Shown: positions 14,141 through 37,396 of the stretch, piece by piece
Layout of the letters: each line of letters begins with the position of its first letter
Numbering within the stretch: the first letter of the stretch is position 1
DNA from: Chamaelirium japonicum
Lineage: Eukaryota > Streptophyta > Magnoliopsida > Liliales > Melanthiaceae
Assembly (NCBI GenBank): GCA_947650365.1
Contig: OX393555.1
Location: forward strand, 83,767,995-83,831,994
DNA length: 64,000 nt
Direction: 5' to 3'
Translations under genes and position numbers: made by a program
The notes under the pieces: generated by a model
The model's database searches: none
What the model was told of the DNA's origin: nothing
What the model saw: the letters and a program-made list of their open reading frames with translations, nothing else

Positions 14141-14580
14141 CGTGCGAATGAATTAGAATGGATCGTGCGAATGAGTTAGAATGGATCCTATGAATGAATT
14201 AGAATGGATCGTGCGAATGAATTAGAATGGATCGTACGAATGAATTAGAATAGATTGTGCGAATGAATAAGAATAGATCATACTAATTCATTCGTACTAA
14301 TCCATTCTATTTCATTCGTACTATCTATTCTAATTCATTCGCACGATCCATTCTTACTCATTCGTACGATCCATTCTAATTCATTCGCACGATCCATTCT
14401 AATTCATTAATATGAATCGTATGAATGAAATAGAATGGATTCATGCGATCCATTCTAATTCATTCGCACGATCCATTCTAATTCATTCATACGATCCATT
14501 CTAATTGGATCGTATGAATGAATTAGAATGGATCGTGCGAATGAATTAGAATGGATCGTACAAATGAAATAGAATGGATT
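14138..14580. repeat. Switch complex: F-R-F-R-F
   Basis: F 14138-14281, R to 14414, a 30-bp F islet (GAATCGTATG to GGAT), R to 14505, and F to 14580, ending GGATTCTCACGAATG. Six switches in under 450 bp. The same pattern recurs at 18573-18993, shifted 4414 bp. Confidence 0.85.
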
Positions 14581-18572: not shown

Positions 18573-18993
18573 AGGATCGGGCGAATGAATTAGAATGGAT
18601 CGTATGAATGAATTAGAATGGATCGTGCGAATGAATTAGAATGGATCGTACGAATGAATTAGAATAGATTGTGCGAATGAATAAGAATAGATCATACTAA
18701 TTCACTCGTACTAATCCATTCTATTTCATTCGTACTATCCATTCTAATTCATTCGCACGATCCATTCTTACTCATTCGTACGATCCATTCTAATTCATTC
18801 GCACGATCCATTCTAATTCATTAATATGAATCGTATGAATGAAATAGAATGGATTCATGCGATCCATTCTAATTCATTCGCACGATCCATTCTAATTCAT
18901 TCATACGATCCATTCTAATTGGATCGTATGAATGAATTAGAATGGATCGTGCGAATGAATTAGAATGGATCGTACAAATGAAATAGAATGGAT
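18573..18993. repeat. Switch complex: F-R-F-R-F (copy)
   Basis: Same switches as 14138-14580: F to 18697, R to 18828, short F to 18855, R to 18920, F to 18993. One unit is missing from the first F part, and CACTCG replaces CATTCG near 18702. Confidence 0.85.
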
Positions 18994-26539: not shown

Positions 26540-26844
26540 GCACGAATGTATCCATTCTAATTCAATGGATCGTGCGAATGAATTAGAATGGATCGTATGA
26601 ATGAATTAGAATGGATCGTACGAAGGAATTAGAATGGATCGTACGAATGAATTAGAATAGATCGTACGAATGAATTAGAATGGATTGAATTAGAATGAAT
26701 CGTACGAATGAATTAGAATGAATCATACCGTACGAATGAATTAGAATGGATCATACGAATGAAATAGAATGGATCGTATGAATGAATTAGAATGGATCGT
26801 GCGAATGAATTAGAATGGATCGTACGAATGAAATAGAATGGATT
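26540..26844. repeat. R islet followed by F
   Basis: A 33-bp R islet (26540-26572), then F to 26844 with a 38-bp unit and ATACC variant. Both edges use GGATTCGCACGAATGTATCC, so this looks like two copies of the same junction bracketing a short forward stretch. Confidence 0.85.
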
Positions 26845-27517
26845 CGCACGAATGTATCCATTCTAATTCATTCGCACGATCCATTCTTACTCATTCGTAC
26901 GATCCATTCTAATTAATTCGTACGATCCATTCTAATTCATTCGTACGACCCATTCTAATTCATTCGTACGATCCAATCTAGTTCATTCGTATGATCCATT
27001 CTTACTCATTCGTACGATCCATTCTAATTCATTCGTACGATCCATTCTAATTCATTCGTACGATCCATTCTAATTCATTTGTACGATCCATTCGTACGAT
27101 CAATTCTATTTCATTCGTACGATCCATTCTAATTCATTCGCACGATCTATTTTAATTCATTCGTACTATCCATTCTAATTCCTTCGTACGATCCATTCTA
27201 ATTCCTTCGTACGATCCATTCTAATTCATCCGTACGATTCATTCTAATGCAATCCATTCTAATTCATTCGTACGATCCATTCCAAATCATTCGTACGATC
27301 CATTCTAATTCATTCTAATTCAATCGCACAATCCATTCTAATTCATTCGTACGAAGGTATCCATTCTAATTCATTCGCACAATCTATTCTAATTGAATAG
27401 ATTCTAATTCATTCGTACGGTATGATTCCATTCTAATTCATTCGCACGATCCATTCTAATTCATTCATACGATCCATTCTATTTCATTCGTACGATCCAT
27501 TCTTACTCATTCGTACG
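26845..27517 (-). repeat. R block
   Basis: Reverse units. From about 26940 it belongs to the third copy of the palindrome's outer segment. It contains CGGTATGATTCC near 27418 and ends at CGTACGATCGTACC. Confidence 0.91.
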
Positions 27518-27950
27518 ATCGTACCAATGAATCAGAATGGATTAGAATGGATCCATTCCAATTAGAATGGATCATACGAAGGAATTAGAATGGATCGTGC
27601 GAATAAATTAGAATGGATCGTATGAATGAATTAGAATAGATTGTGCGAATGGATTAGAATGGATCATACGATTGAGTAAGAATGGATTGTACGAATGAAA
27701 TAGAATAGATCGTACGAATGAATTAGAATGGATCGTGCGAATAAATTAGAATGGATCGTATGAATGAATTAGAATGGATCGTGCGAATGAATTAGAATAT
27801 AGATCGTACGAATGAATTAGAATGGATCGTATGAATGAACTAGAATGGATCGTGCGAATGAATTAGAATGGATCGTACGAATGAAATAGAATTGATCGTA
27901 CGAATGGATCGTACGAATGAATTAGAATGGATCGTACGAATGAATTAGAA
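26940..27950. repeat. Third copy of the palindrome outer segment
   Basis: Matches 35.94-36.92 kb directly (offset 8995, dropping to 8972 after one unit is lost) and 31.39-32.34 kb in reverse. Shared rare markers are CTTATTTTAATTC-region variants, AATGCAATCC, TTGAATAGATTC, TATGATTCC, the GGATCC hairpin, GAATATAGATCG and GAATTGATCG. Confidence 0.86.
27081..27914. repeat. 834-bp segment with 67-bp perfect inverted ends
   Basis: 27081-27147 is the exact reverse complement of 27848-27914; both carry the rare GATCAATTC / GAATTGATC and a shortened CCATTCGTAC unit. Equivalent segments of 811 bp lie at 31414-32224 (inverted) and 36076-36886. No coding sequence lies inside, so I treat it as a satellite segment rather than a transposon. 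Confidence 0.83.
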
Positions 27951-27968
27951 TGGATACATTCGTGCGAA
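27518..27968 (+). repeat. F block with GGATCC hairpin
   Basis: Forward units beginning GTACCAATGAATCAG. Near 27550 a GGATCCATTCCAATTAG stretch gives a small internal palindrome. It contains a GAATATAGATCG unit near 27797 and ends at CATTCGTGCGAATCC. Confidence 0.9.
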
Positions 27969-30371: not shown

Positions 30372-30563
30372 TCGTACGAATGAAATAGAATGGATCCTAC
30401 GAATGAATTAGAATGGATCCATTCTAATTCATTCGTACGATCCATTCTAATTCATTCGTACAATCCATTCTAATTCCTTCGTACGATCCATTCTAATTCA
30501 TTCGTACGATCCATTCTAATTCATTCGCACGATCCATTTAATTAGAATGGATACATTCGTGCG
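30372..30563. repeat. Switch complex with 40-bp perfect palindrome
   Basis: F 30372-30417, R to 30538, F 30540-30563, then CGTGCGAATCC into R. The F-to-R turn is a perfect 40-bp palindrome (30398-30437) centred on GGATCC, nearly two whole units back to back. Confidence 0.88.
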
Positions 30564-31786
30564 AATCCATTCTATTTCATTCGTACGATCCATTCTAATT
30601 CATTCGCACGATCCATTCTAATTCATTCGTGCGATCCATTCTAATTCATTCGTACGATCCATTCTAATTCATTCGTACAATCCATTCTAATTCATTCGTA
30701 CGATCCATTCTAATTCATTCATACGATCCATTCTAATTCATTAGCACAATCTATTCTAATTCATTCGTACGATCCATTCTAATTCATTCGCACGATCCAT
30801 TCTAATTCATTCGCACGAATGTATCCATTCTAATTCATTTGCACGAATGTATCCACTCTAATTCATTCGTACGATCCATTCTAATTCATTAGCACGATCC
30901 ATTCTAATTCATTCGTACGATCTATTCTAATTCATTTATACGATCCAATCTAATTTATTCATACGATCCATTCTAATTCATTCGTACGATCCATTCTAAT
31001 TCATTCGTACGATCCATTCTAATTCGTGCGAATGTATCCATTCTAATTCATTCGTACGATCCATTCTAATTCATTCGTACGAATGTATCCATTCTAATTC
31101 ATTTGTACGAATGTATCCACTCTAATTCATTCGTACGATCCATTCTAATTCATTAGCACGATCCATTCTAATTCATTCGTACGATCCATTCTAATTCATT
31201 TATACGATCCAATCTAATTCATTCGCACGATCAATTCGCATTCACTCAAACGATCCATTCTAATTCATTCATATGATCCATTCTAATTCATTCGCACGAA
31301 TGTTTCCATTCTAATTCATTAGCACGATTCATTCTAATTCATTCGTACGATCTATTCTAATTCATTCATACAATCCATTCTAATTCATTCGTACGATCCA
31401 TTCTAATTCATTCGTACGATCCATTCGTACGATCAATTCTATTTCATTCGTACGATCCATTCTAATTCATTCGCACGATCCATTCTAGTTCATTCATACG
31501 ATCCATTCTAATTCATTCGTACGATCTATATTCTAATTCATTCGCACGATCCATTCTAATTCATTCATACGATCCATTCTAATTTATTCGCACGATCCAC
31601 TCTAATTCATTCGTACGATCTATTCTATTTCATTCGTACAATCCATTCTTACTCAATCGTATGATCCATTCTAATCCATTCGCACAATCTATTCTAATTT
31701 ATTCGCACGATCCATTCTAATTCCTTCGTACGATCCATTCTAATTGGAATGGATCCATTCTAATCCATTCCGATTCATTGGTACGA
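30564..31786 (-). repeat. R block
   Basis: Reverse units. Two near copies of a CACGAATGTATCC / ATTAGCACG / TTTATACG string lie at about 30820-30960 and 31080-31225. The left arm of the giant palindrome begins near 31385. A GGATCC turn lies near 31750, and the block ends at GGTACGATCGTACG. Confidence 0.9.
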
Positions 31787-32224
31787 TCGTACGAATGAGT
31801 AAGAATGGATCGTACGAATGAAATAGAATGGATCGTATGAATGAATTAGAATGGATCGTGCGAATGAATTAGAATGGAATCATACCGTACGAATGAATTA
31901 GAATCTATTCAATTAGAATAGATTGTGCGAATGAATTAGAATGGATACCTTCGTACGAATGAATTAGAATGGATTGCGCGATTGAATTAGAATGAATTAG
32001 AATGGATCGTACGAATGAATTGGAATGGATCGTACGAATGAATTAGAATGGATTGCATTAGAATGAATCGTACGGATGAATTAGAATGGATCGTACGAAG
32101 GAATTAGAATGGATCGTACGAAGGAATTAGAATGGATAGTACGAATGAATTAAAATAGATCGTGCGAATGAATTAGAATGGATCGTACGAATGAAATAGA
32201 ATTGATCGTACGAATGGATCGTAC
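31414..32224. repeat. 811-bp segment with inverted ends (inverted copy)
   Basis: 31414-31480 and 32158-32224 are the 67-bp inverted ends found at 27081 and 27848. The interior is the reverse complement of the interior at 36076-36886 and lacks the one extra unit of the 27-kb copy. Confidence 0.82.
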
Positions 32225-32386
32225 AAATGAATTAGAATGGATCGTACGAATGAATTAGAATGGATCGTACGAATGAATTAGAATGGATCGTACGAATGAG
32301 TAAGAATAGATAATGCGAATGAACTAGATTGGATCGTACGAATGAATTAGAATGGGTCGTACGAATGAATTAGAATGGATACACGA
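31787..32386 (+). repeat. F block
   Basis: Forward units with GGAATCATACCG near 31890, TCTATTCAATTAG near 31910, GATTGCATTAG near 32052 and GATAATGCG near 32307. Each is mirrored in the right palindrome arm or at 27 kb. It ends at GATACACGATCCAGATCC. Confidence 0.9.
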
Positions 32387-32543
32387 TCCAGATCCATTCT
32401 AATTCATTTGCACAATCTATTCTAATTCATTCGTAGGATCGTGCGAATGAATTAGAATGGATCGTACGAATGTGTAAGAATGGATCGTACGAATGAATTA
32501 GAATGGATCGTATGAATGAATTAGAATGGATACATTCGTGCAA
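32387..32543. repeat. R islet then F
   Basis: R 32387-32438 (GATCCAGATCC to CGTAGGATCG), then F to 32543 ending ACATTCGTGCAAATCC, a variant of the CGTGCGAATCC junction. Confidence 0.88.
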
Positions 32544-33068
32544 ATCCATTCTATTTCATTCGTACGATCCATTCTAATTCATTCGCACGATCCATTCTTA
32601 CTCATTCGTATGATCCATTCTAATTCATTCGTACGATCCATTCTAATTCAATCCATTCTAATTCATTCGTACGATCCATTCTTACTCATTCGTACGATCC
32701 ATTCTAATTCATTCGCACGAATGAATCCATTCTAATTCATTCGTATGATCCATTCTAATTCATTCGCATGAATGTATCCATTCTAATTCATTCGTACGAT
32801 CCATTCTATCTCATTCGTACAATCCATTCTATTTCATTCGTACGATCCATTCTAATTCATTCGCACGATCCATTCTACTCATTCGTACGATCCATTCTAA
32901 TTCATTCGCACGAATGAATCCATTCTAATTCATTCGTATGATCCATTCTAATTCATTCGTACAATCCATTCTATTTCATTCGTACGATCCATTCTTACTC
33001 ATTCGTACGATCCATTCGTATCCATTCTAATTCATTCGTACGATCTATTCTAATTCATTCGTACGATC
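32544..33068 (-). repeat. R block
   Basis: Reverse units. The first ~280 bp hold a composite module. The rest (to about 33060) is a third copy of the end of the 1.47-kb duplication: CTACTC at 32875 versus 24818 and 29602, and the shortened CCATTCGTATCC unit near 33010. Confidence 0.9.
32620..32826 (-). repeat. 208-bp composite module, copy (R)
   Basis: Reverse of the module at 836-1043. It lies over the accidental + strand frame 32526-32735 caused by TTACTC and TATTTC replacing TAATTC. Confidence 0.82.
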
Positions 33069-33532
33069 CTATGAATGAATTAGAATAGATTGTGCGAATG
33101 AATTAGAATGGATATGGATCGTGTATCCATTCTAATTCATTCGTACGACCCATTCTAATTCATTCGTACGATCCATTCTAATTCATTCGCACGATCAATT
33201 CTAATTCATTCGCACGATCCATTCTAATTCATTACTACGATCCATTCTAATTCATTCATACGATCCATTCTAATTCATTCATACGATCCATTCTAATTCA
33301 TTCGCACGATCCATTCGCATTCATTCGCACGATCCATTCTAATTCATTCGTACGATCCATTTTAATTCATGCGCACAATCTATTCTAATTCATTCGCACA
33401 ATCTATTCTAATTCATTCGTACGATCCATTCTAATTCATTCGTACGATCCATTCTAATTCATTCGTACGATCCATTCTAATTCATTCGCACGCTATTCTA
33501 ATTCATTCGTAGGATCCATTCTAATTCATTCG
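33069..33532. repeat. Short F then R block
   Basis: F 33069-33113 ends GGATATGGATCGTGTATC; R follows to 33532 with TTACTACG, GCATTCATTCGCACG and the truncated unit CGCACGCTATTC (33489). It ends at CGTGCAAAAG. Confidence 0.89.
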
Positions 33533-33818
33533 TGCAAAAGAATTAGAATGGATCATACGAATGAATTAGAATGGATCGTATGCATGAATTAGAATGGATC
33601 GTACGAATGAATTAGAATGGATCGTACGAATGAATTAGAATGGATCGTATGAATGAATTAGAATGGATCGTATGAATGAATTAGAATGGATCGTGCGAAT
33701 AAATTAGAATGGATCGTATGAATGAATTAGAATGGATCGTACGAATTAAATAGAATGGATTGTACGAATGAGATAGAATGGATCGTACGAATGAATTAGA
33801 ATGGATACATTCGTGCGA
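33533..33818 (+). repeat. F block
   Basis: Forward units with GTATGCATG near 33580 and GATTGTACGAATGAGATAG near 33757, mirrored at 34.56-34.84 kb. It ends CATTCGTGCGAATCC. Confidence 0.9.
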
Positions 33819-34552
33819 ATCCATTCTATTTCATTCGTACGATCCTTTCTAATTCATTCGCACAATCCATTCTAATTCATTCATACGATCCATTCTAATT
33901 CTTTCGTATGATCCATTCTATTTCATTCGTACGATCGTACGAATGAATTAGAATGGATTGAATTAGAATGAATCGTACAAATGAATTAGAATGAATCGTA
34001 CGAATGAATTAGAATTCATTCGTACGATCCATTCTAATTTATTCGTACAATCCATTCTAATTCATTCGTACGATCCATTCTAATTCATTCGCACGCTATT
34101 CTAATTCATTCGTAGGATCCATTCTAATTCATTCGTGCAAAAGAATTAGAATGGATCGTACGAATGAATTAGAATGGATCGTATGCATGAATTAGAATGG
34201 ATTGTGCGAATGAATTAGAATGGATCGTACGAATGAATTAGAATGGCGTACGATCCATTCTAATTCATTCGTACGATCCATTCTAATTCATTCATATGAT
34301 CCATTCTAATTCATTCATACGATCCATTCTATTTCATTTGTATGAACCATTCTAATTCATTCGTACGGTATGATTCATTCTAATTCATTCGTACGATTCA
34401 TTCTAATTCAATCCATTCTAATTCATTCGTACGATCGTACGAATGAAATAGAATGGATCGTACGAATGAATTAGAATGGATCGTATGAATGAATTAGAAT
34501 GGATCGTGCAAATGAATTAGAATGGATCGTACGAATGAAATAGAATGGATTC
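33819..34552. repeat. Palindrome centre: R-F-R-F-R-F
   Basis: R to 33935, F to 34012 (turn at AGAATTCATTCG), R to 34130, F to 34249 (turn at GGCGTACGATCC), R to 34434, F to 34552. The symmetry axis lies near 34.15-34.19 kb; 34.01-34.365 kb is the non-mirrored spacer. Confidence 0.86.
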
Positions 34553-34838
34553 GCACGAATGTATCCATTCTAATTCATTCGTACGATCCATTCTATCTCA
34601 TTCGTACAATCCTTTCTATTTCATTCATACGATCCATTCTAATTCATTCATACGATCCATTCTAATTTATTCGCACGATCCATTCTAATTCATTCATACG
34701 ATCCATTCTAATTCATTCATATGATCCATTCTAATTCAATCACACGATCCATTCTAATTCATTCGTACGATCCATTCTAATTCATGCATACGATCCATTC
34801 TAATTCATTCGTACGATCCATTCTAATTCTTTTGCACA
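34553..34838 (-). repeat. R block
   Basis: Mirror of 33533-33818. Ends TTTTGCACAAATG, where the left arm reads CGTGCAAAAG. Confidence 0.9.
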
Positions 34839-35203
34839 AATGAATTAGAATGGATCCTACGAATGAATTAGAATAGCGTGCGAATGAATTAGAATGGATC
34901 GTACGAATGAATTAGAATGGATCGTACGAATGAATTAGAATAGATTGTGTGAATGAATTTGAATAGATAGTGCGCATGAATTAGAATGGATCGTACGAAT
35001 GAATTAGAATGGATCGTGCGAATGAATGCGAATGGATCGTGCGAATGAATTAGAATGGATCGTATGAATGAATTAGAACGGATCGTAGTAATGAATTAGA
35101 ATGGATCGTGCGAATGAATTAGAATGGATCGTGCGAATGAATTAGAATGGATCGTACGAATGAATTAGAATGGGTCGTACGAATGAATTAGAATGGATAC
35201 ACG
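34839..35203 (+). repeat. F block
   Basis: Forward units with the truncated GAATAGCGTGCG unit near 34870, GATAGTGCGCATG near 34966, GAATGCGAATGG near 35025 and GTAGTAATG near 35088. It ends at GATACACGATCC. Confidence 0.9.
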
Positions 35204-35783
35204 ATCCAGATCCATTCTAATTCATTCGCACAATCTATTCTAATTCATTCGTAGGAGCGTACGAATGAATTAGAATAGATCGTACGAATGAATTAGAATG
35301 GATACGAATGGATCGTACGAATGAGTAAGAATGGATCGTATGAATGAAATAGAATGGATTGTACGAATGAATTAGAATGGATCATACGAATGAATTAGAA
35401 TGGATTCATTCGTGCGAATGAATTAGAATGGATCGTACGAATGAGTAGAATGGATCATGCGAATGAATTAGAATGGATCGTACGAATGAAATAGAATGGA
35501 TTGCACGAATGAGATAGAATGGATCGTACGAATGAATTAGAATGGATACATTCATGCGAATGAATTAGAATGGATCATACGAATGAATTAGAATGGATTC
35601 ATTCGTGCGAATGAATTAGAATGGATCGTACGAATGAGTAAGAATGGATCGTACGAATGAATTAGAATGGATTGAATTAGAATGGATCGTACGAATGAAT
35701 TAGAATGGATCGTACGAATAAGTAAGAATAGATCGTGCGAAAGAATTAGAATGGATCGTACAAATGAAATAGAATGGATTCGC
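35204..35783. repeat. R islet then F block
   Basis: R islet to 35256 (ends CGTAGGAGCG), then F with GGATACGAATGG near 35300, a 22-bp GAGTAGAATGG unit near 35443 and a composite module. It ends GGATTCGCACGAATG. Confidence 0.89.
35499..35700 (+). repeat. 208-bp composite module, copy (F)
   Basis: Begins GATTGCACGAATGAGATAG. The 38-bp unit carries GGATCG instead of GAATCG near 35680. It underlies the accidental minus-strand frame at 35588-35797. Confidence 0.81.
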
Positions 35784-35932
35784 ACGAATGTATCCATTCT
35801 AATTCATTCATACGATCCATTCTAATTCATTCGTACGATCCATTCTTACTCATTCGTACGATACATTCTAATTCATTCGCACGATCCTACGAATGAATTA
35901 GAATAGATTGTGCGAATGAATTAGAATGGATC
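35784..35932. repeat. Short R then F
   Basis: R 35784-35885, then CGATCCTACGAATG into a 46-bp F piece ending GGATCTGGATCGTGTATC. Confidence 0.88.
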
Positions 35933-36512
35933 TGGATCGTGTATCCATTCTAATTCATTCGTACGACCCATTCAAATTCATTAGTACGATCCATTCTAAT
36001 TCATTCGCACGATCCATTCTTACTCATTCGTACGATCCATTCTAATTCATTCGTACGATCCATTCTAATTCATTCGTACGATCCATTCGTACGATCAATT
36101 CTATTTCATTCGTATGATCCATTCTAATTCATTCGCACGATCTATTCTAATTCATTCATACTATCCATTCTAATTCCTTTGTACGATCCATTCTAATTCC
36201 TTCGTACGATCCATTCTAGTTCATCCGTACGATTCATTCTAATGCAATCCATTCTAATTCATTCGTACGATCCATTCCAATTCATTCGTACGATCCATTC
36301 TAATTCATTCTAATTCAATCGCACAATCCATTCTAATTCATTCGTACGAAGGTATCCATTCTAATTCATTCGCACAATCTGTTCTAATTGAATAGATTCT
36401 AATTCATTCGTACGGTATGATTCCATTCTAATTCATTCGCACGATCCATTCTAATTCATTCATACGATCCATTCCATTTCATTCGTACGATCCATTCTTA
36501 CTCATTCGTACG
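35933..36512 (-). repeat. R block
   Basis: Reverse units with GACCCATTC near 35965, AATGCAATCC near 36240, TTGAATAGATTC near 36388 and TATGATTCC at 36416, all mirrored in the left arm. It ends CGTACGATCGTAC. Confidence 0.9.
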
Positions 36513-37167
36513 ATCGTACTAATGAATCGGAATGGATTAGAATGGATCCATTCCAATTAGAATGGATCGTACGAAGGAATTAGAATGGATCGTGCGAATA
36601 AATTAGAATAGATTGTGCGAATGGATTAGAACGGATCATACGATTGAGTAAGAATGGATTGTACGAATGAAATAGAATAGATCGTACGAATGAATTAGAA
36701 TGGATCGTGCGAATAAATTAGAATGGATCGTATGAATGAATTAATATGGATCGTGCGAATGAATTAGAATATAGATCGTACGAATGAATTAGAATGGATC
36801 GTATGAATGAACTAGAATGGATCGTGCGAATGAATTAGAATGGATCGTACGAATGAAATAGAATTGATCGTACGAATGGATCGTACGAATGAATTAGAAT
36901 GGATCGTACGAATGAATAAGAATGGATCGTACGAATGAAATAGAATGGATTGTGCGAATGAATTAGAATGGATCGTACGAATGAATTAGAATGGATCGTG
37001 TGAAAGAATTAGAATGGATTGTATGAATGAATTAGAATAGATCGTATGAATGAATTAGAATGGATCGTACGAATGAATTAGAATAGATCGTATGAATGAA
37101 CTAGAATGGATACATTCGTGCGAATGAATTAGAATGGATCGTACGAATGAATTAGAATGGATCGTAC
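36513..37167 (+). repeat. F block spanning the domain border
   Basis: Starts inside the palindrome (GGATCC turn near 36545, GAATATAGATCG near 36770) and leaves it at about 36915. GTGTGAAAGAATTAG, the hallmark of the right-hand domain, first appears at about 36990. It ends ATCGTACGATTC. Confidence 0.9.
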
Positions 37168-37396
37168 GATTCATTCTAATTCATTCGTACGATCCATTCT
37201 AATACATTCGTACGATTCATGCTAATTCATTCGCACGATCCATTCTAATTCATTCGTACGATCCATTCTTATTCATTCATACGATCCATTCTAATTCATT
37301 CGCACAATCCATTCTAATTCATTCGTACGATCCATTCTAATTCATATGCACAAAGGTATCCATTCTAATTCATTCGTACGATCCATTCTAATTCAG
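37168..37396 (-). repeat. R block
   Basis: Reverse units with AATACATTCG near 37202, CATATGCACAAAGG near 37344 and end junction AATTCAGGATCGTACG. The last ~60 bp recur at 47.48 and 58.84 kb. Confidence 0.91.

What the first reader, a model, noticed from the sequence alone, without database searches (positions are those of the whole stretch)
31385..36915. Giant imperfect palindrome inside the satellite
Arms of about 2.6 kb (31.385-34.012 and 34.365-36.915 kb) mirror each other unit by unit, including about ten internal strand switches and many private variants, around a ~0.35-kb spacer. Because the arms have diverged by point changes and unit indels, this is not a simple foldback sequencing artefact.
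Basis: seen in the sequence. Interest (0 to 1): 0.8.

Follow-up and report, generated by a model that had tools for sequence, protein, structure and literature searches.

The report
Travelling palindrome in a plant's centromeres
A multi-kilobase mirror-image stretch in the centromere repeat DNA of a flowering plant is real, but it seems to have arisen once and been copied around the genome inside much larger blocks of centromere DNA, which offers a way to trace how centromere DNA spreads between chromosomes.

Summary
The palindrome is real and its coordinates are accurate. Arms 31383-34012 and 34366-36917 are 97.7% identical: 58 substitutions in 2552 aligned bases, three one-unit (23-bp) indels, nine paired strand switches per arm. 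Of 53 random inverted blocks the best reaches 91.8%. Assembly and repeat match the published holocentric plant Chionographis japonica and its CENH3-binding satellite Chio1/Chio2.

A marker at its centre lies at 36 loci on 10 of 12 chromosome scaffolds and 10 small contigs. All 7 loci fetched (chosen for a facing marker pair) show arm, asymmetric loop, inverted arm. Arms resemble same-side arms at other loci (nearest neighbour same type 14 of 16, own partner 0 of 16), so the palindrome most likely formed once and was copied whole, without arm-to-arm homogenisation. Two outside markers recur beside many of these loci in the same order and polarity, so it rides in a colinear block of about 47 kb or more.

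Best mechanism: one old fold-back duplication, then long-tract ectopic copying between centromere units. No raw reads were available.

The parts
31383..34012 (+). Left (L-type) arm of the palindrome
   Evidence: 97.73% to the right arm, 9 corresponding strand switches
34366..36917 (-). Right (R-type) arm; lacks three 23-bp units that the left arm has
   Evidence: closest relative among 15 other arms is the R-type arm on C14, 0.6-0.9%
34013..34365 (+). Spacer; asymmetric loop plus the innermost piece of the right arm as it stands at other loci
   Evidence: Near-invariant in 8 loci
34030..34189 (+). Third copy of left-arm sequence (33427-33586) inside the loop; gives the palindrome a direction
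   Evidence: 98 and 99 of 100 matches in two windows; present in the spacer of all 7 fetched loci
34238..34266 (+). Odd inner junction used as centre marker
   Evidence: 45 genome hits, 36 loci
30540..31382 (+). Further part of the ancestral arm, kept on the left side only; 30540 is the window's own break
   Evidence: 1.5-2.7% from arms at other loci, while the stretch beyond 36917 is 9.9-13.1% away; homology between L029 and L030 runs on past this point
26660..27955 (-). Third local copy of the outer arm
   Evidence: 98.85% to 31373-32676 inverted; 97.10% to 35673-36927 direct
14422..14466 (+). Outside (control) marker, first copy, in a direct duplication
   Evidence: 33 genome hits, 28 within 60 kb of a palindrome-family locus, the window's own two included
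18836..18880 (+). Outside (control) marker, second copy

Best explanation
The feature is one copy of a palindromic segment (both arms at least 3.1 kb at the best-kept fetched locus, C12, around an asymmetric loop) in the Chio1/Chio2 centromere satellite of the holocentric plant Chionographis japonica. SHOWN: the palindrome and its sharp edges; the shared architecture at 7 of 7 fetched loci (selected for a facing marker pair); its centre marker at 36 loci; arms that group by side rather than by locus; outside markers in the same order and polarity over about 47 kb. INFERRED: it arose once by an inverted duplication (fold-back or template switch, perhaps helped by the unit's 8-bp dyad TCGTACGA or the Chio2 dyad CATTCGTGCGAATG), and was later copied whole, inside blocks of about 40 kb or more, between centromere units of different chromosomes by long-tract ectopic repair (break-induced replication or exchange of chromosome ends). 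No job of the palindrome itself is shown; its DNA is centromere satellite and may carry CENH3 like the rest.
For: Arms far above background. Seven fetched loci on C14, C9, C41, C12, C193, C6 and C25 all hold arm, loop with a third copy, inverted arm, some arms broken or cut by the fetch; loop and odd junctions near-invariant. Nearest neighbour of an arm is same-type in 14 of 16 and never the own partner; mean L-R distance within a locus 2.29% (8 pairs) and between loci 2.28% (56 pairs); label test 6 of 256 as extreme, two of them equivalent to the observed. Centre marker 21 forward + 24 reverse hits = 36 loci on C1-C7, C9, C11, C12 and ten small contigs. Middle marker: 28 of 33 hits within 60 kb of a family locus, where at most 2.2% of the satellite lies; polarity as here in 27 of 28; without the window's own two hits 26 of 31 and 25 of 26. 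Left marker: 22 of 41 hits within 100 kb of a family locus, polarity right in 22 of 22 (20 of 39 and 20 of 20 without the window's own); nine loci carry all three markers in order: the window, C2, C4, C12 and five small contigs. Loop direction agrees with outside-marker direction at L029-L033, 5 of 5. Identity of organism.
Against: No reads: satellite may be mis-joined, and Hi-C placement of satellite contigs is uncertain. Small contigs may be haplotigs (assembly about 1.52 Gb, 1C 1368 Mb in the paper), so copy numbers on C13 and above are soft. L-type and R-type arms do not form two clean clades; deep nodes have low support, and L032_R and L035_R have an L-type nearest neighbour. Five of 33 middle-marker and 19 of 41 left-marker hits have no family locus near; of 19 left-marker hits within 60 kb of a middle marker, 17 have the expected order and 17 the same strand. 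Colinearity rests on three short markers, not on continuous alignment; 251-base probes from C12 and C9 could not be placed clearly. Random 10-kb samples, seven of them from the same chromosome, also share segments of 500 bp or more with the 122-kb stretch (7 of 9), so sharing is general and the palindrome is not special in being shared.
Confidence: 0.72

Rival explanations
1. A local fold-back (inverted) duplication made this palindrome at this place, and similar ones arose independently elsewhere.
For: Inverted duplications are common in the array: 252 inverted against 238 direct in 122 kb, so palindromes do form often.
Against: The loop with its third copy and odd junctions is the same at 8 loci; the right arm's closest relative is on C14, not its own partner; no arm of 16 has its own partner as nearest neighbour.
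Confidence: 0.06
2. Blocks spread as circular DNA that re-inserted at new centromere units.
For: Proposed in the 2023 paper as one of the options (section 14). A tandem pair with a 37,935-bp period on C12 is what insertion of a multimer, or simple tandem duplication, would give.
Against: Markers keep one order at nine loci with no sign of rotated order, and direction relative to the scaffold end is the same at 7 of 7 terminal loci (hand tally); circles should give rotated start points and random direction. Only three markers were placed, so rotation could be missed.
Confidence: 0.15
3. Short-tract interlocus gene conversion spread the palindrome piece by piece.
For: Favoured in general terms by both papers; shared segments of 0.5-1.8 kb are common between random samples.
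Against: Markers 20-47 kb apart travel together in order and polarity.
Confidence: 0.15
4. Assembly artefact: the palindrome or its many copies come from haplotigs, mis-joins or collapsed reads.
For: Assembly larger than the genome; half the contigs with the centre marker are small ones (10 of 20).
Against: Copies on ten large scaffolds; arms and loci differ by 0.6-4.6% with private variants and unit indels.
Confidence: 0.1
5. The palindrome is kept for a structural role in the centromere (hairpin or cruciform), as proposed for Tribolium macro-dyad symmetries.
For: Conserved centre; the beetle precedent.
Against: About 36 loci of a 232-Mb satellite; the copy here has lost the inner end of one arm and the outer part of the other; arms are not homogenised.
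Confidence: 0.05

Closest known systems
Chio1/Chio2 centromere satellite of Chionographis japonica (Kuo et al. 2023, PMC10264360)
   Same: 23-bp unit, 28-bp variant with a 5-bp difference and one substitution, 8-bp dyad, mixed forward and reverse arrays, about 16% of the genome, megabase units (section 8)
   Different: What I saw of that paper (abstract, sections 8 and 14, passages) tells of mixed orientation and monomer-level hairpins, not of kilobase palindromes, their dispersal or colinear blocks; it names a higher-order repeat cluster (CL73) that may overlap; supplement and figures not seen
Macro-dyad symmetries of Tribolium satellites (Veseljak et al. 2026, PMC13081366)
   Same: Multi-kilobase inverted satellite subarrays with conserved inversion points in putative centromere DNA
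   Different: There two satellites built from a ~110-bp unit, with thousands of copies of few inversion sites; here a 23/28-bp satellite and one specific palindrome at about 36 loci inside blocks of about 47 kb. The paper says such symmetries were documented only in Tribolium
Chama satellite of Chamaelirium luteum (Kuo et al. 2025, PMC12722358, passages)
   Same: Sister genus; shares the 9-mer TTCGTACGA with Chio
   Different: Chama arrays are consistently oriented
Large palindromes of mammalian sex chromosomes (recalled, not looked up)
   Same: Long near-identical inverted arms
   Different: Those keep arms alike by arm-to-arm conversion; here arms are no more alike within a locus than between loci

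Membership tests
Chio1/Chio2 centromere satellite | 23-bp monomer and a 28-bp variant differing by 5 bp and one substitution | tested here: met
   Tandem period 23; linker ACATTCGTGC 65 times beside CGTAC 417 times; published description
Chio1/Chio2 centromere satellite | TTCGTACGA in the monomer | tested here: met
   The unit contains TCGTACGAA, its reverse complement; 9-mer stated in the 2025 paper
Chio1/Chio2 centromere satellite | About 16% of an assembly with 12 scaffolds of 1090.73 Mb, N50 81.11 Mb | tested here: met
   15.3% estimated; scaffold lengths sum by hand to 1090.67 Mb, C8 = 81.11 Mb
Chio1/Chio2 centromere satellite | CENH3 occupancy at this place | not testable with these tools
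   No ChIP data here; published for Chio arrays in general
Satellite macro-dyad symmetry (Tribolium type) | Inverted multi-kilobase satellite subarrays around an inversion point | tested here: met
Satellite macro-dyad symmetry (Tribolium type) | Conserved inversion site shared by many arrays | tested here: met
   Near-invariant centre at 8 loci, centre marker at 36 loci
Satellite macro-dyad symmetry (Tribolium type) | Arrays predominantly of two opposed subarrays | tested here: not met
   301 strand switches in 191.6 kb, nine in each arm
Satellite macro-dyad symmetry (Tribolium type) | Hairpin or cruciform in the cell | not testable with these tools
   Hypothetical in the beetles too
Fold-back type transposon (features recalled) | Discrete ends | tested here: not met
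   Homology between L029 and L030 runs on past the window's break; outside markers co-travel
Fold-back type transposon (features recalled) | Target-site duplication | not tested
   No ends to test
Arm-converting palindrome, sex-chromosome type (feature recalled) | Arms of one locus more alike than arms of different loci | tested here: not met
   L-R distance 2.29% within, 2.28% between loci; 0 of 16 nearest neighbours is the own partner

The most novel reading that the evidence does not exclude
Holocentromere DNA of this plant spreads by copying or exchanging very long tracts (40 kb and more) between centromere units of different chromosomes, keeping direction relative to the chromosome end as break-induced replication or end exchange would; the palindrome with its direction-giving loop is a natural barcode of these events, so that units can be traced to donors.
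Probability: 0.35. Interest if true: 0.8.

Novelty: new variant of a known kind. Interest (0 to 1): 0.6.

Why it matters
How about 100 centromere units came to lie along the 12 chromosomes of this plant is left open by the papers on it, which offer gene conversion, circular DNA or inversions (section 14; passages). A palindrome whose loop gives direction, present at some 36 loci and embedded in colinear blocks, lets one order copying events, seek donors, measure tract length and test polarity with existing assembly and read data. It would also be a multi-kilobase satellite palindrome outside the beetle genus to which a 2026 paper says macro-dyad symmetries were limited.

Tried and rejected
Local inverted duplication: rejected. 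Fold-back transposon: rejected for lack of discrete ends. Arm-to-arm gene conversion: no excess similarity within loci; the longest mismatch-free run, 208 columns, is what an even spread gives (simulated median 198, 95% point 300). My notebook remark that the C2 array shows one orientation of a junction: withdrawn as a listing artefact; the C2 samples hold 5 forward and 1 reverse. Ordering the three local copies by private changes: left arm 7, right arm 21, upstream copy 18; no clean order. Strand-switch sites: concentrated in few junction classes, but copies of one junction are not independent events, so no rate is drawn. Short palindromic motifs as a general cause of switches: the commonest forward-to-reverse class is not the one with the longest self-match in the consensus unit, so the idea is not borne out in its simple form. 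Placing 251-base probes: too many near-equal matches. Text search for monomer letters: 0 papers. A first DNA-mode search for the unit found nothing because that mode skips common words. One self-comparison printed no rows (most likely the gap setting) and was rerun with another setting. Some rows are self-matches of overlapping stretches; I dropped them, and pairs contained in better ones, before the counts (490 kept). Never answered: an outer-arm marker and two right-hand markers, so the right edge of the block is unknown.
Full report
1. What is there. The window is one 23-bp satellite, CGTACGAATGAATTAGAATGGAT, in both orientations; no ORF of 150 aa or more. A Viterbi reading of strand gives 51% forward and 108 strand switches in the window (method). 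It is C7:83767995-83831994 of a 1.52-Gb assembly. Seven of seven 10-kb samples from C7 83.0 to 84.2 Mb are satellite; those at 82.0 and 84.6 Mb are not, so the array is about 1.2 to 2.6 Mb long if continuous, and the window lies about 2 Mb from the end of an 85.9-Mb scaffold.

2. The palindrome. Self-comparison puts 31131-34015 / 34349-37169 above all other inverted pairs. Trimmed to its sharp edges, 31383-34012 and 34366-36917, it has 58 substitutions in 2552 aligned bases (97.73%), three 23-bp gaps and a 9-base gap. Of the 58, 39 are transitions, 25 of these at a CpG of one arm, which fits the CpG methylation reported for Chio arrays (passage). Nine strand switches in each arm correspond. 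Fifty-three random inverted blocks reach 91.8% at most. At recalled plant rates of about 0.7 to 1.3 x 10^-8 per site, K = 0.023 would mean roughly one to two million years or generations; CpG decay makes this an over-estimate.

3. It is one of many duplications. In 122 contiguous kb (window plus six adjacent stretches) 238 direct and 252 inverted duplications remain after clean-up. Equal numbers mean that unequal crossing-over alone, which makes direct copies, cannot explain the array (inference). Ours is the largest inverted pair; three direct pairs are larger (4.9, 4.8 and 3.2 kb aligned, 97.5-98.2%).

4. It was probably not made here. A 45-base marker shared by the arms has 29 forward and 34 reverse copies in the genome, several in facing pairs 1.6-1.8 kb apart (ours 1676). 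I fetched seven loci picked because they hold such a pair. All seven have arm, spacer with a copy of about 33405-33643, inverted arm; in some the arms are broken or cut by the fetch. The centres of all eight align almost without change, including two odd junctions; the window lacks about 117 bp at the inner end of its left arm. The loop has a direction, so arms can be called L-type and R-type. The window's right arm is 0.6% (inner) and 0.9% (outer) from the R-type arm on C14 but 2.3% and 2.0% from its own partner. Nearest neighbours are same-type in 14 of 16 arms (exceptions L032_R and L035_R) and never the own partner; the grouping by type beats all but 4 of 254 other labellings. Some pairs are firm (win_R with L029_R 100, L030_R with L033_R 100, L030_L with L033_L 99, win_L with L029_L 100) but deep nodes are weak, as a burst would leave them. 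At other loci arms run on to what is 30540 here; in the window the sequence beyond 36917 is 9.9-13.1% away from them.

5. Copy number. A 29-base marker at the inner junction, not chosen by pairing, has 45 hits, 18 of them in nine facing pairs 252 or 229 bp apart: 36 loci on C1, C2, C3, C4, C5, C6, C7, C9, C11 and C12 and ten small contigs. Exact matching makes this a lower bound.

6. It rides in a bigger block. A control marker from a direct duplication (window 14422 and 18836) was meant to show background. Of its 33 hits, the window's own two included, 28 lie within 60 kb of a palindrome-family locus, where at most 2.2% of the satellite lies, and polarity agrees in 27; the exception lies between two tandem copies and has a correct partner too. 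Five hits have no family locus near. A marker further left (window -12383 and -6654) has 41 hits, own two included: 22 lie within 100 kb of a family locus, all 22 with the right polarity; 19 do not. Nine loci, the window among them, carry all three in order: C2, C4, C7, C12, C14, C16, C41, C62, C99. At these the left marker lies 38-90 kb from the palindrome (one further hit on C99 at 24 kb). On C12 three markers repeat at exactly 37,935 bp. So blocks of about 40 kb and more, not the palindrome, look like the thing copied. The right edge is unknown because the server stayed busy. Against special status: 7 of 9 random 10-kb samples (seven from C7, two from C2) share a segment of 500 bp or more with the 122-kb stretch outside the palindrome, so sharing is general.

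7. Direction. At the seven family loci nearest scaffold ends (C2 2.2, C3 1.8, C4 92.7, C6 88.1, C7 83.8, C11 0.6, C12 67.8 Mb) the block or loop points the same way relative to the end (hand tally from strands and lengths; chance 2^-6). Of four interior loci with known direction three point to the nearer end and C3 91.7 Mb does not. This weakly favours end exchange or break-induced replication over free insertion and depends on Hi-C placement.

8. Organism. Twelve scaffold lengths sum by hand to 1090.67 Mb with C8 = 81.11 Mb; the paper on Chionographis japonica gives 12 scaffolds of 1090.73 Mb, N50 81.11 Mb, Chio1 of 23 bp, Chio2 of 28 bp, 16.11% of the genome, 100 CENH3-positive units of 1.89 Mb on average, mixed orientation (section 8). 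My estimate from 47-mer counts is 232 Mb, 15.3% (282 copies in 212 kb sampled, mostly C7). The 2025 paper gives TTCGTACGA for Chio.

9. Literature seen. PMC10264360: abstract, sections 8 and 14, passages. PMC12722358: passages only. PMC13081366: abstract, part 1 of sections 7 and 10, passages. Others: search listings only. In the 2023 main text 'palindrom' occurs once, in the abstract, and 'inverted' not at all; in the 2025 main text neither occurs. Supplements and figures were not seen, so I cannot say that kilobase palindromes in Chio are unpublished, only that those searches did not show them.

10. Verdict. No function of the palindrome itself is shown.

Noticed in passing
G000 C12:38467825-38526979: Three markers repeat at exactly the same 37,935-bp spacing: a tandem duplication with a period of about 38 kb inside an interior satellite array.
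   Followed up: partly
window and C7 samples: The commonest forward-to-reverse switch class (69 of 151) sits on the 28-bp Chio2-type unit, whose extra ACATT makes the dyad CATTCGTGCGAATG; one exact junction of this kind has 11,954 copies in the genome. An inversion hot spot, or an old junction copied many times.
   Followed up: partly
G000 loci near scaffold ends on C2, C3, C4, C6, C7, C11, C12: The block or loop has the same direction relative to the scaffold end in 7 of 7 cases (hand tally).
   Followed up: partly
L005 1-335 (C7:83740000-83740334): A non-satellite piece ends here, 28 kb left of the window; it looks like the end of a plant LTR element, which is recalled and was not searched.
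   Followed up: no
L010 1-2482 and 4376-6858 (C7:84.0 Mb): A direct duplication of 2.5 kb at 99.2%, more alike than those in the window.
   Followed up: no
window -9624 to -6155 (C7:83758370-83761839): Another large palindrome, arms about 1.6 kb at 96.1% with a 239-bp spacer, overlapping a 4.9-kb direct duplication.
   Followed up: no
window 31383-34012 against 34366-36917: All three unit indels between the arms are exactly one 23-bp unit, and all three are extra in the left arm.
   Followed up: no
G000 C3, C6, C9, C11, C12, C14 loci: Besides the facing pairs, the arm marker recurs in back-to-back pairs about 4.0 kb apart, pointing to a third arm next to the palindrome at several loci; L029 and L030 hold a more diverged one.
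   Followed up: partly
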